Positions 29,807 through 34,036 of a stretch of DNA of 64,000 nt are shown piece after piece. The position numbers were made by a program, and so were the translations under genes. Origin of the DNA: Nocardia sp. NBC_01503 (GTDB taxonomy: Bacteria > Actinomycetota > Actinomycetes > Mycobacteriales > Mycobacteriaceae). The stretch spans positions 186,001-250,000 of the forward strand of contig NZ_CP109596.1 of NCBI RefSeq assembly GCF_036327755.1, in the 5' to 3' direction. The notes beneath the pieces were generated by a model that was not told where the DNA came from, searched no databases, and worked only from the letters and a program-made list of their open reading frames with translations. The stretch's first letter is position 1. The number at the start of each line of letters is the position of its first letter.

Positions 29807-30676
29807 TCAGTCAGCGATCTTTCGGCTACCCAGGTGTGGCGTGGGTAATGGTGCGGAGGGCGCGGGCACCACGGTGCGCACCAACTCCTCCTCGGCGGCG
29901 CGTCGCACATGGGCGACATCGGGGCTACCGGCCACCAGATCCTGCAGGAAGATCTTGGCGCGAATCACCGGCCGCCGATACCTGCGTTCGCGCACGATCG
30001 CACGCCGCATCCGCCCACGGCGAGTGCCGTAACGCCAGCGTGCCCACGGCGCACCCGGCCGACTCAAGCGCAGCGCGCCGACGAACAGCAGCGGCGGGAA
30101 GAACATGCCGAACAGGCCGGTCCAAATCTTGCCCTTGGCAATGACAATCGCGGCCAGCAGCAGATTCACCACCGCGAAGACGACGATCACCACGCGTTCG
30201 GCGGTACCCGGATCCGAGCGCAGATCATTGATGTCCAGCAACCACAGTGGATGAAAACCCAGCAGCAGCAACCCGGTCACCGCGACCGCGACGAATACGG
30301 CGTCGACCGAAGTGCGGCCCTGCTCCTCCCAGTACACGTCACGCAGGTAGTAGATGAGCGCGAACTCGTCCAGCACCAGCGCCGCGCCCACACCGAAGAC
30401 CGCCGCCACCGCACCGACCACACCGCTGCTGCTGTCGTACAGCGTCACCAGGCCGACACCGGAACCCAGTACCAGGATCACGCCGAAGACCATGTGGTGG
30501 ATGTGCACATCGCCCGCGCGGACGTTCCCGGGCCACCAGCGCACCTGTTTGCGGATGAGCCGCACGCTGATGCGGATCAGGATGAAGCCGATGATGAAGC
30601 CGAGCAGCAGGCAGGCCAGGGGTAGGCGGCCGTTGTCGATGACGTCGTCCTCCCACCACCGGTGAAAACCTCTCAT
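29807..30676 (-). CDS. Conserved multi-pass membrane protein, function unknown
   Basis: A 289-aa protein with about seven helices in the first 210 residues, including LACLLLGFIIGFILIRISV, then GDVHIHHMVFGVILVLGSGV with two or three His and LVLDEFALIYYLRDVYWEEQ. The C-terminal 80 residues are basic and cytoplasmic (RRGRMRRAIVRERRYRRP). The His/Asp/Glu pattern suggests metal or lipid binding, but I do not recognise a named family. Upstream of it lies the inverted-repeat element. Confidence 0.75.
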   Translation of the reverse strand: MRGFHRWWEDDVIDNGRLPLACLLLGFIIGFILIRISVRLIRKQVRWWPGNVRAGDVHIHHMVFGVILVLGSGVGLVTLYDSSSGVVGAVAAVFGVGAALVLDEFALIYYLRDVYWEEQGRTSVDAVFVAVAVTGLLLLGFHPLWLLDINDLRSDPGTAERVVIVVFAVVNLLLAAIVIAKGKIWTGLFGMFFPPLLFVGALRLSRPGAPWARWRYGTRRGRMRRAIVRERRYRRPVIRAKIFLQDLVAGSPDVAHVRRAAEEELVRTVVPAPSAPLPTPHLGSRKIAD

Positions 30677-30801
30677 GCCACTCTCGTCTCCGGGATCCGC
30701 TCATAAGGTCATTGCCGAGCCTAGCCATGGGTTGTGGATGCCCATGTCAGGGCTATTCTCCCGCGCGAGATCGGCCGTCGAATGAACCTCCGGCTACGAC
30801 T

Positions 30802-30993
30802 CGGGGCCTACGTAGCAGACTCGGACGAATCACCTTCAGCCTCAGCGGGGTTCGGAGGATGGCCACGATTTTTCAGCGTGGTTACCTCGCCTGCCGTACC
30901 CGGCTTTCGCTCCCCCTTTTGGGAGCACACTCTCACCTACCAGCCTGGTCGGCCGGCCGTGGGAACCTTCAGAACCCCAACGACAAAAAACAA
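30802..30993 (+). repeat. Left arm of a large imperfect inverted repeat
   Basis: This arm of about 190 bp is the inverted, diverged partner of 31213-31402. Nearly identical blocks shared with the right arm are CAGCGGGGTTCGG, CCACGATTTTTCAG, GTGGTTACCTCGCCTGCCGT, ACCCGGCTTTCGCTCCCC, GGTCGGCCGG and GGGAACCTTCAGAACC. Short indels and a replaced stretch after CTCCCC separate them. No gene-like frame continues out of it with a start signal. Confidence 0.8.
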
Positions 30994-31183
30994 GAGACCA
31001 AGAACCAAGACAAAAGACGCCAGGACCAGAGGAACCACCCGCACGAAGTAGACAATCCGGGCAAAGTGGGCCGCCTCGGGGTGCCCGTACCCCACTTCCG
31101 AGGTGACCGCACCACTGACACAGGGCTATCACACCCCGCGTACTGGTATCACACCCCGTACAAGGGGTGTGCGGGTTAGACAC
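30842..31183 (-). CDS. Uncertain open frame with three CxxC pairs inside the inverted-repeat element
   Basis: From GTG 31183 the frame encodes 113 aa. It carries PCTGCDT, LCQWCGHLG and LCPDCLLRAG, spacing that resembles a zinc ribbon. The second half runs through the left repeat arm and looks like translated repeat rather than protein. No clear ribosome site precedes the GTG. It may be a real small zinc-binding protein, a remnant of one, or chance in GC-rich DNA. Confidence 0.25.
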   Translation of the reverse strand: MSNPHTPCTGCDTSTRGVIALCQWCGHLGSGVRAPRGGPLCPDCLLRAGGSSGPGVFCLGSWSLVFCRWGSEGSHGRPTRLVGESVLPKGGAKAGYGRRGNHAEKSWPSSEPR

Positions 31184-31193
31184 GGGGTGTGAT
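31127..31193. repeat. Four-copy CACACCCC dyad in the spacer of the inverted repeat
   Basis: CACACCCC occurs at 31130-31137 and 31150-31157; its complement GGGGTGTG occurs at 31164-31171 and 31184-31191. Both pairs share one exact symmetry centre at 31160/31161. The outer pair extends to ATCACACCCCG/CGGGGTGTGAT. This looks like a protein-binding array or a structured RNA stem. Confidence 0.7.
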
Positions 31194-31212
31194 GACTTCG
31201 AGGGTGGGGGAG

Positions 31213-31402
31213 TTTGTTTTTTCGTGGTGGTTCTGAAGGTTCCCGCTACCGGCCGACCCGGCTGGGGCGCGAGTATTCGCGCCCGAGTGGGGAGCGAAAG
31301 CCGGGTACGGCAGGCGAGGTAACCACTCTGAAAAATCGTGGCATTCTGCCGAACCCCGCTGGAACGTGATGCCCCGCAGGGCATTCGGCTACGAAGGCCC
31401 CG
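31213..31402 (-). repeat. Right arm of the large imperfect inverted repeat
   Basis: Inverted partner of 30802-30993 (see there). The inner edge is T-rich (TTTGTTTTTTCG), matching the A-rich inner edge of the left arm; the outer edge is AGGCCCCG. Together with the 219-bp spacer the unit spans about 600 bp in the gap between a membrane protein gene and tex. No target-site duplication was recognised. Confidence 0.8.
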
Positions 31403-31444
31403 GGTACATCCCCTTCTACCGTCCCATTCGACCGATTCCCCGGG

Positions 31445-31523
31445 AGAGACGTACACCGATGTACTCACGCAGGCAAACGTCGAGTAGACCCCTGCGTGAG
31501 TACATCCATGTTGATTCGTCTCT
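31445..31523 (-). terminator. Long two-part hairpin downstream of tex
   Basis: ATGTACTCACGCAGG (31459-31473) pairs perfectly with CCTGCGTGAGTACAT (31491-31505) around a 17-nt loop. The outer AGAGACG (31445-31451) and CGTCTCT (31517-31523) can extend it with internal loops. It lies 20 bases past the tex stop and probably ends that transcript. Confidence 0.7.
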
Positions 31524-31543
31524 GCCGACCGGTAGGTACGGAG

Positions 31544-34036
31544 CTACTTGCCGAAGCCAGCGCGGCGGAGGGCGTCGGCCATCGAGCCGGAGGGCGCGGC
31601 TTGCGGGCGGTTGCCGCCCTGGCCACCGCGGGCACCGCCGCCACCTTGGCCACCGCGAGCGCCACCGGCACCCTGGCCGCCGCGCGCAGCACCACCGCCA
31701 CCCTGGCCGCCCCGGGGGTTATTGCCTTGGCCGCCCTGGCGGGCACCGCCGCCTTGCCCCTGGCCCTGGGGCCGCTGGCCCTGGCCGCCGCGCGGACGGC
31801 CTTCGCCGCGTTCGGGTTTGGGTGCGCCGGGCTCGTCGTCGAGGCGGAGGGACAGGCCGATGCGCTGGCGTTGGACGTCCACCTCCATGACCTTGACCTT
31901 GACCACATCGCCGGATTTCACGACCTCGCGAGGGTCCTTGATGAAGTTGTGTGACATGGCGGAGACGTGGACGAGGCCGTCCTGGTGGACGCCGATGTCG
32001 ATGAAGGCGCCGAAGGCCGCGACATTGGTGACCACGCCTTCCAGGACCATGCCGGGCTTCAGGTCGGCGACTTTTTCGATGCCAGCGGCGAATTCGGCGG
32101 TTTTGAATTCGGGGCGGGGGTCGCGACCGGGCTTCTCCAGTTCGGCGATGATGTCGGTGACCGTGGGGACGCCGAAGCGTTCGTCGGTGAAGTCGGCCGG
32201 GCGCAGGGCGCGCAGGGCCGTCGTATTGCCGATGAGTTCGTGCATGCCGCGGCCGCTGGCCTCGAGCATGCGGCGGACCACCGGATATGCCTCGGGGTGG
32301 ACCGAGGAGGTGTCCAGGGGGTCGTCACCGTTGCGGATGCGGAGGAAGCCCGCGCACTGTTCGAAGGCCTTGGGGCCCAGGCGTGGAACGCTCAGCAGCG
32401 CGGTGCGGCTGCGGAACGGTCCATTGGCGTCGCGGTGGGCGACAATGCTTTCCGCGACCGCGCCGCTGATACCGGAGACGCGCGACAGCAGCGGAACCGA
32501 GGCGGTGTTGACGTCGACGCCGACCGCGTTCACGGCGTCTTCGACGACCGCGCCGAGGGAGCGGGCGAGCAGCGTCTCGGAGATGTCGTGCTGGTACTGG
32601 CCGACGCCGATGGACTTCGGGTCGATCTTCACCAGCTCGGCCAGGGGGTCCTGGAGGCGGCGGGCGATGGAGACCGCGCCACGCAGTGAGACATCCATAT
32701 CGGGCAGCTCCACCGAGGCGTACGCGGAGGCGGAGTACACCGACGCGCCCGCTTCGGAGACCACGATCTTGGTGGGCTTGTTCTCCGGAATACGCGAGAT
32801 GAGTTCGGCGGCAAGGGCATCGGTTTCGCGCGAGGCGGTGCCGTTGCCGATGGCGATGAGCTCCACCTTGAAGCGCGCCACCAGTGCGCCCAGCACCGCG
32901 AGGGATTTCTCGGTCTGTCCGGTGTGCGGGTAGATGACCTCGGTGGCGACGCACTTGCCGGTGGCATCGACCACGGCGACCTTCACACCGGTGCGGAAGC
33001 CGGGGTCCAGACCCATGGTGGTGCGGGTGCCCGCGGGTGCGGCCAGCAGCAGATCGCGCAGGTTCATGGCGAAGACGTCGACGGCGTCGCGCTCGGCGGA
33101 CTGGCGCAGTCGCATGCGGATATCGATGCCCATGCTCACCTGGAGCTTGGTGCGCCAGGCCCAGCGCACGGTGTCGAGCAGCCAGGTGTCGGCGGCGCGG
33201 CCCTGGGCGGCGATGCCGAACTTGTGGGCGATGCGGCCTTCGTAGATGGTGCGCTCGCCGGGTTCGGGCTCTTCGGTGTCGGCCTCGAGGTGCAGGGTGA
33301 GCACCTCTTCCTTCTCACCGCGCAGCAGCGCGAGGATGCGGTGCGACGGCAGCTTCGAGAACGGCTCGCTGAATTCGAAGTAGTCGGCGAACTTCGCGCC
33401 CGCCTCTTCCTTGCCCGCGCGCACGCTGGAGCTGATCTGCCCGCGATTCCACATCAGCTCGCGCAATTCACCGACCAGGTCGGCGTCCTCGGCGAAGCGC
33501 TCCACCAGGATCGAGCGCGCGCCGTCGAGCTGTTCGGCGTTGTACTGCGCGGGATCGGTGGTCGGATCGTTGATCAGGGCATCGGCGACGGGCTCGTGTC
33601 CGGCCTCGCGCGCGATCTGCGCCTTGGTGCGCCGCTTGGGCTTGTACGGCAGGTAGATGTCTTCCAGGCGGGCCTTGGTGTCGGCGAGCATGATCTGCGC
33701 GTGCAGCGCGTCATCCAATTTGCCCTGACCGCGGATGGATTCGATGATCGATCCCCGGCGCTCGTCGAGTTCGCGCAGGTAGTGCAGGCGCTCGTCGAGC
33801 TGGCGCAGTTGCGCGTCGTCCAGGCCGCCGGTGACCTCCTTGCGGTACCGGGCCACGAACGGAACGGTGGATCCGGCGTCGAGGAGTTCGACGGCGGCAC
33901 GCACCTGTTCTTCCCGTACCCCCAGCTCGTCGGCGATACGGCGGCCGACACTGGCTAGGCGGACGGTTCCGGTTCCGGTGGAGCTGACGGTGTCTGCGTT
34001 GACAGGTTCGGAGGCTATCGTCACGCCCGCAGACAC
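31544..34036 (-). CDS. tex: Tex-type RNA-binding transcription accessory protein with RGG-like tail
   Basis: An 830-aa protein. It has the N-terminal Tex domain (ELLDAGSTVPFVARYRKEVT), the YqgF-like domain (TMGLDPGFRTGVKVAVVD), helix-hairpin-helix units (SRVSGISGAVAESIVAHRD), and an S1 domain near 650-720 (LEGVVTNVAAFGAFIDIGVH). The last 80 residues are repeats of GGQG, RGG and GGGA, an RGG-like RNA-binding tail, ending SMADALRRAGFGK. The start is GTG 34036 or 34024. Tex helps transcription-linked RNA handling and stress tolerance. Confidence 0.95.
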   Translation of the reverse strand: MSAGVTIASEPVNADTVSSTGTGTVRLASVGRRIADELGVREEQVRAAVELLDAGSTVPFVARYRKEVTGGLDDAQLRQLDERLHYLRELDERRGSIIESIRGQGKLDDALHAQIMLADTKARLEDIYLPYKPKRRTKAQIAREAGHEPVADALINDPTTDPAQYNAEQLDGARSILVERFAEDADLVGELRELMWNRGQISSSVRAGKEEAGAKFADYFEFSEPFSKLPSHRILALLRGEKEEVLTLHLEADTEEPEPGERTIYEGRIAHKFGIAAQGRAADTWLLDTVRWAWRTKLQVSMGIDIRMRLRQSAERDAVDVFAMNLRDLLLAAPAGTRTTMGLDPGFRTGVKVAVVDATGKCVATEVIYPHTGQTEKSLAVLGALVARFKVELIAIGNGTASRETDALAAELISRIPENKPTKIVVSEAGASVYSASAYASVELPDMDVSLRGAVSIARRLQDPLAELVKIDPKSIGVGQYQHDISETLLARSLGAVVEDAVNAVGVDVNTASVPLLSRVSGISGAVAESIVAHRDANGPFRSRTALLSVPRLGPKAFEQCAGFLRIRNGDDPLDTSSVHPEAYPVVRRMLEASGRGMHELIGNTTALRALRPADFTDERFGVPTVTDIIAELEKPGRDPRPEFKTAEFAAGIEKVADLKPGMVLEGVVTNVAAFGAFIDIGVHQDGLVHVSAMSHNFIKDPREVVKSGDVVKVKVMEVDVQRQRIGLSLRLDDEPGAPKPERGEGRPRGGQGQRPQGQGQGGGARQGGQGNNPRGGQGGGGAARGGQGAGGARGGQGGGGARGGQGGNRPQAAPSGSMADALRRAGFGK

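What the first reader, a model, noticed from the sequence alone, without database searches (positions are those of the whole stretch)
30802..31402. 600-bp element: 190-bp inverted arms around a symmetric CACACCCC array and CxxC-rich frame
The arms (30802-30993 and 31213-31402) share long identical blocks but are diverged by indels, so they are two related copies in opposite orientation. The 219-bp spacer holds four CACACCCC copies with one shared symmetry centre (31160/31161), different from the arms' centre near 31102. An open frame with three CxxC pairs lies in the spacer. No transposase and no target duplication are visible. It could be a mobile miniature element, a structured RNA locus or a site-specific recombination target.
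Basis: partly seen in the sequence, partly recalled or inferred. Interest (0 to 1): 0.75.

Follow-up and report, generated by a model that had tools for sequence, protein, structure and literature searches.

The report
Gene-less mobile repeat linked to DUF222-HNH
The 600-base palindrome is one gene-less copy of a mobile DNA repeat in Nocardia that also sits just behind nearly every DUF222-HNH nuclease gene examined, which suggests that this common but poorly understood nuclease family has DNA partners that travel with it.

Summary
Observation confirmed: arms 30801-30993 and 31213-31402, nested CACACCCC dyad centred at 31160/31161. It is a dispersed repeat. The genome holds 23 places with element sequence; 12 lie just 3' of a DUF222-HNH gene (12 of 13 such genes; 22 of 24 over three species where the 3' side is assembled), 11 are gene-less, this one among them. 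Two 2-kb copies carry the gene between similar arms. Insertion is shown by absence at orthologous sites: window locus without element in G063, copy L015 cleanly empty in G173, the 2-kb copy L010 absent in 8 of 8 fetched loci. Left and right arms are two distinct types, about 84% and 86% alike within type and 74% between. I saw no target duplication and no recombinase gene inside; the core shows sequence conservation without convincing covariation; the CxxC frame is broken in other copies. Best reading: a MITE-like, non-autonomous partner of REP13E12-type DUF222-HNH elements, perhaps mobilised in trans by the HNH protein; that last step is inferred. New variant of a known kind.

The parts
30801..30993 (+). 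left-type arm, outer end CGGGGCCTACGTAGC
31213..31402 (-). right-type arm, outer end CGGGGCCTTCGTAGC; in copies beside a DUF222 gene the right type tends to face the stop codon (L166, L191; less clear in L165, undecided in L176)
30877..30916 (-). core of the left arm (GGGGGAGCGAAAGCCGGGTACGGCAGGCGAGGTAACCACG read on the minus strand)
   Evidence: 60-arm alignment
31288..31326 (+). core of the right arm (same sequence read on the plus strand)
   Evidence: 60-arm alignment
31014..31030 (+). purine-rich motif AAGACGCCAGGACCAGA, found just inside arms of other copies and also upstream of several DUF222 genes (L165, L166, L167, L169-L172)
31128..31193 (.). nested CACACCCC dyad, an exchangeable spacer module
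30842..31468 (-). open frame with three CxxC pairs; by-product, not a conserved gene
31416..31535 (.). second small palindromic repeat beside the element; neighbour, not part of the unit

Best explanation
A gene-less (non-autonomous), MITE-like copy of a Nocardia mobile repeat whose fuller forms include a DUF222-HNH nuclease gene of the REP13E12 kind. Shown by comparison: many copies with fixed ends, presence and absence at orthologous sites, gene-bearing 2-kb copies with similar ends, and a strand-fixed position 3' of DUF222-HNH genes. Inferred: the HNH protein recognises the near-invariant core in the arms and nicks or cuts there, and the element is then copied elsewhere by host repair or by an uncharacterised strand transfer; gene-less copies are served in trans. 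I give about 0.8 to 'gene-less mobile repeat linked to DUF222-HNH' and about 0.4 to 'the HNH protein is what moves it'.
For: 23 places in the own genome. Arm 3' of the gene in 12 of 13, 6 of 7 and 4 of 4 DUF222 genes in G000, G138 and G063. Gene between arms in L010, L011, L182, L189. Insertions against empty sites: window in G063, L015 in G173 and nearly so in G158, L010 in 8 of 8 fetched loci where menD is followed by the same next gene, L011 in 5 relatives. Distinct left and right arm types. Core nearly invariant in 60 arms of several species. Only DUF222 was found by Pfam in the two 2-kb copies.
Against: Gene and 3' element can have separate histories: the genes of L180 and L188 are 96% alike but their 3' elements 79%. 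In the 2-kb copies L010, L011 and L182 the 3' arm is nearer the left type, while in L166 and L191 the gene faces the right type, so the 600-bp form is not a simple internal deletion of the 2-kb form. DUF222 units of other genera compared here showed no such arms (a weak test). No target duplication seen, which most MITEs have. No cutting, excision or present-day movement is shown. Pfam HNH was reported only for L009 among the proteins tested; the HNH motif in L010/L011 is read by eye. L010's insertion also brought one extra gene.
Confidence: 0.58

Rival explanations
1. Two independent elements: a MITE moved by an unrelated transposase that likes to land behind DUF222 genes, or DUF222-HNH genes that home to sites beside the element. 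The association would then be one of target choice.
For: Separate histories of gene and 3' element in L188; the 600-bp form has its own two ends and starts 10-35 bp after the stop codon; DUF222 units elsewhere without arms.
Against: The arm lies on the 3' side in 22 of 24 genes of three species, and no other recombinase was found in the two 2-kb copies; the IS256-type gene in L009 is a later insertion into an arm.
Confidence: 0.25
2. A chromosomal module without own mobility (terminator, protein binding site or prophage attachment site) that is spread by gene conversion and recombination between DUF222 copies.
For: Hairpins behind several genes; REP13E12 loci are reported as gene conversion hotspots and as holding a putative prophage attachment site (PMC13061034, passages).
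Against: 11 gene-less places in the own genome and empty sites with unrelated flanks, which gene conversion alone would not make.
Confidence: 0.12
3. A structured RNA, possibly a guide-like RNA serving the HNH nuclease.
For: Core in the same sense 3' of the genes inspected (by eye); small hairpins in single folds; paired cells above all 500 shuffles; weak NCBIfam matches of two DUF222-HNH proteins to the HNH part of IscB.
Against: No excess of double changes (5 against 4.4) and RNAalifold finds 3 pairs at -1 kcal/mol; no Rfam match; the IscB matches score 22-23 bits against a cut-off of 175.
Confidence: 0.05

Closest known systems
REP13E12 / DUF222-HNH repeats of mycobacteria
   Same: related protein family; multi-copy chromosomal repeat with sharp borders
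   Different: the window copy has no gene; arms, core and gene-less copies are not described in the passages read and were not found at DUF222 units of other genera compared here
MITEs (miniature inverted-repeat transposable elements)
   Same: about 600 bp, inverted ends, no gene, many copies, gene-bearing relatives with similar ends
   Different: arms about 190 bp and of two distinct types; no target duplication seen; the gene in the larger form is DUF222-HNH, not a known transposase
IS200/IS605 elements and their palindrome-ended gene-less derivatives (recalled)
   Same: no target duplication, structured non-coding ends, nuclease gene next to a non-coding end
   Different: no Y1 transposase or TnpB reported by Pfam in the copies tested; an HNH protein instead

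Membership tests
REP13E12 / DUF222-HNH repeat | carries a DUF222-HNH gene | tested here: not met
   the window copy has no such gene; 12 related places in the genome adjoin or contain one
REP13E12 / DUF222-HNH repeat | multi-copy chromosomal repeat | tested here: met
   23 places
MITE | short, gene-less, inverted ends, many copies | tested here: met
MITE | target-site duplication | tested here: not met
   none seen by eye in the flanks; exact empty sites are few, so a very short one is not excluded
MITE | ends shared with an autonomous element that encodes its transposase | tested here: inconclusive
   ends shared with 2-kb copies holding DUF222-HNH; that this protein transposes is not shown
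Structured RNA family | covariation or a match to a known family | tested here: not met
   no Rfam match at gathering score over the window; no excess of double changes, though the share of paired cells exceeded all shuffles
IS200/IS605 | Y1 transposase or TnpB | tested here: not met
   Pfam on L010, L011 and L009 proteins; not every copy was tested

The most novel reading that the evidence does not exclude
DUF222-HNH elements are a distinct class of bacterial mobile element: an HNH nuclease acting on a conserved core in long inverted ends mobilises its own gene and gene-less copies, with no DDE, tyrosine or serine recombinase and no target duplication.
Probability: 0.25. Interest if true: 0.85.

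Novelty: new variant of a known kind. Interest (0 to 1): 0.58.

Why it matters
DUF222 genes were found in 49 of 61 genomes of the order, in up to 32 copies, yet REP13E12 repeats are said to lack a defined biological function (PMC13061034, passage). Defined non-coding ends, a near-invariant core and gene-less copies would give a concrete DNA substrate and make the question of how this family spreads directly testable.

Tried and rejected
Phage and plasmid origin: no match of the element in 50,697 phage and 72,556 plasmid records at the default E-value. The DUF222 protein L174 has no phage match and matches 3 Tsukamurella plasmids; two viral-contig scans gave no relative. Structured RNA: little support. 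CxxC gene: rejected. Inverted arms at DUF222 units of other genera: none evident, by eye and a crude 20-base comparison. Structure of the DUF222-HNH protein: a two-row alignment gave mean pLDDT 38, uninformative, so no fold search; no PDB sequence relative at E <= 1; no PADLOC match for 4 proteins. End motif with up to 2 mismatches: 36 + 40 matches in the genome against 35 + 28 of the backward control, so only the exact and 1-mismatch matches are informative.

Literature: the listings (REP13E12; DUF222 with HNH; 13E12 with HNH; 13E12 repeat with mobile; Nocardia with miniature inverted-repeat; phiRv1/REP13E12/attB; DUF222 with mobile element; non-autonomous, HNH endonuclease, inverted repeats, actinobacteria; DUF222) showed no paper whose title or abstract start describes such an element. 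I read only passages of PMC10589994 and PMC13061034. The library holds open-licence papers only.

Rows left out: of 67 arms, 61 remained after removing those over 95% alike and 60 were aligned, L004 being left out by me. One search looked at 29 fetched loci of the 150 genus genomes; 4 of these show only the left flank. In one search the arms of L111 were labelled by position; by spacer orientation the labels would be reversed, so one search gives the figures as labelled (83.1 / 84.9 / 74.8), without L111 (83.9 / 85.7 / 73.8) and reversed (82.5 / 82.9 / 75.9). An earlier count said 7 of 8 for G138; the recount is 6 of 7.

Full report
What is there. The whole lies between two minus-strand open frames, 29807-30676 and 31544-34036 (the latter looks like Tex by its sequence, recalled).

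It is a dispersed repeat. The element finds 57 matching pieces in its own genome (40 of 55 candidates scored), which merge into 23 places. Two other copies are full length (84% and 82%) and one covers two thirds (82%). By hand count, G138 has about 38 places and G063 about 12. Of 60 relatives 8 have any match, in 2 of 22 genera, the one outside the genus being a single piece of about 31 bases. No match in the phage or plasmid collections.

The DUF222-HNH link. Two places are 2 kb long arm to arm and hold a DUF222 gene (L010, L011). A PF02720 search gave 13 matches in G000, 11 in G138 and 7 in G063, two of the latter in one gene. With a profile built from 28 arms, an arm lies 3' of the gene in 12 of 13, 6 of 7 and 4 of 4 genes; contig ends cut off the 3' side of 4 G138 and 2 G063 genes. 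The two exceptions, L190 and L187, are close relatives (90% over 1.1 kb); L187 has the purine motif downstream. In G000 element sequence begins 394-1214 bp beyond the 3' end of the DUF222 domain, and is near the 5' side only in the two 2-kb copies. Random placing of 23 points puts 2 or more of the 13 genes within 1.9 kb in 0.2% of 20,000 trials. The remaining 11 places have no DUF222 gene near; 8 of them hold arm sequence and 3 (L019, L023, L028) only spacer sequence. Layouts: gene between arms (L010, L011, L182, L189); gene, stop codon, 10-35 bp, then the two-arm element, with the right-type arm facing the gene in L166 and L191 (86 and 88%), less clearly in L165 and undecided in L176; gene followed by a single reversed arm (L167, L169, L170, L172).

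Insertion. Window locus: G063, 91% alike in the left flank, has 91 bp between the matching flanks and no arm; G138 has both ends but only about 150 bp, the interior lost. Of 29 fetched orthologous loci two have an arm: G138, and G028 with a different single arm and its own TTCACACCC dyad (dyad by eye). Copy L015: its joined flanks align as one piece in G173 (590 of 600, 81%) and, with about 43 extra bases, in G158, while G138 has a miniature of about 92 bp with both ends at the same place. Copy L010: in 8 of 8 fetched loci the menD flank is followed by the same next gene as in G000, with no arm and without the extra gene that also lies in the G000 insertion. Copy L011: shared with G138 and G063, no arm in 5 others. 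Copy L014 is shared with G138's L105 (83.6% over the whole stretch, L191 against L194).

Ends and core. Over 55 distinct ends, many of them related copies, the terminus is CGGGGCCTTCGTAGC; nine bases outside are weakly conserved (GGGATGTAC; G at -9 in 45, C at -1 in 51 of 55) and conservation falls away beyond. I saw no target duplication. Without L111, left arms of 6 copies are 83.9% alike, right arms 85.7%, left against right 73.8%, within one element 73.7%: two distinct ends inherited as a unit. Sixty arms from several species share a near-invariant core AGCCGGGTACGGCAGGCGA. Three hairpins tested on it gave 82.3% paired cells against a shuffled mean of 81.2 (none of 500 as high), covariation score reached by 28 of 500, but double changes 5 against 4.4 (238 of 500) and pair types 17 against 15.5 (113 of 500). 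I read this as constraint on sequence more than on RNA structure.

Spacer. The CACACCCC dyad is at 9 places in G000 and 7 in G138, at none in 4 other genomes, control zero; at L023 and L028 it stands without arms. Other copies have another palindrome (GTACTCACGCAGG type, by eye). It is thus an exchangeable module. The CxxC frame is a by-product.

What it most likely is. A gene-less mobile repeat belonging with DUF222-HNH elements. That it inserted, and the link to these genes, rest on comparison; that the HNH protein does the work is inferred from the association, from finding no other recombinase in the 2-kb copies, and from the conserved core. Against: gene and 3' element can have separate histories, the 600-bp form is not a plain internal deletion of the 2-kb form, and DUF222 units of other genera showed no arms. 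The rival in which genes home to the element, or the element lands beside the genes, keeps about a quarter.

Known relatives. REP13E12 of M. tuberculosis is named together with HNH endonuclease/DUF222 in PMC10589994 (passages) and is said to lack defined biological function in PMC13061034 (passages). The searches listed under Tried and rejected showed no description of such arms or gene-less copies.

Noticed in passing
window 31416-31535: A second, 120-bp palindromic repeat (CTACC...GGTAG around a GATGTACTCACGCAGG hairpin) starts about 13 bp beyond the right arm. 2 matches in G000 (one is itself), 12 in G138, 18 in G063; by hand count 6 of 9 distinct G138 places adjoin an element copy.
   Followed up: partly
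L009 3437-4869: An IS256-type (Transposase_mut) insertion sits inside one arm, flanked by a 9-bp repeat GGGAGCGAA; a later, unrelated insertion.
   Followed up: yes
L025 1160-1228; L146 about 1406-1500; L077 2002-2149: Shrunken copies of 67, about 92 and about 148 bp that keep both ends, as if the interior were lost by recombination between arms.
   Followed up: partly
L058 about 1499-1520: A lone exact end motif in G000 (C1:4115953), whose left flank resembles that of the G138 copy L109 by eye; arm profile E 0.35. It may be a remnant of a shared insertion.
   Followed up: partly
L088 about 2000-2260: G028 has in the same intergenic region as the window a different single arm next to a TTCACACCC double dyad, a variant of the CACACCCC array.
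   Followed up: no
L171 2860-3620 against L167 and L170: At one DUF222 locus shared by three species, G063 has a two-arm element behind the gene where G000 and G138 have a single-arm type.
   Followed up: no
G200 loci L224-L231: In another genus of the same family, DUF222 units 90-96% alike mostly end near the stop codon and begin about 145-175 bp before the domain, so the bare gene cassette seems to be what is repeated there.
   Followed up: partly
window 31617-31807: 27-bp direct repeats inside the 3' part of the neighbouring minus-strand gene (31544-34036) encode a glycine-rich tail.
   Followed up: no
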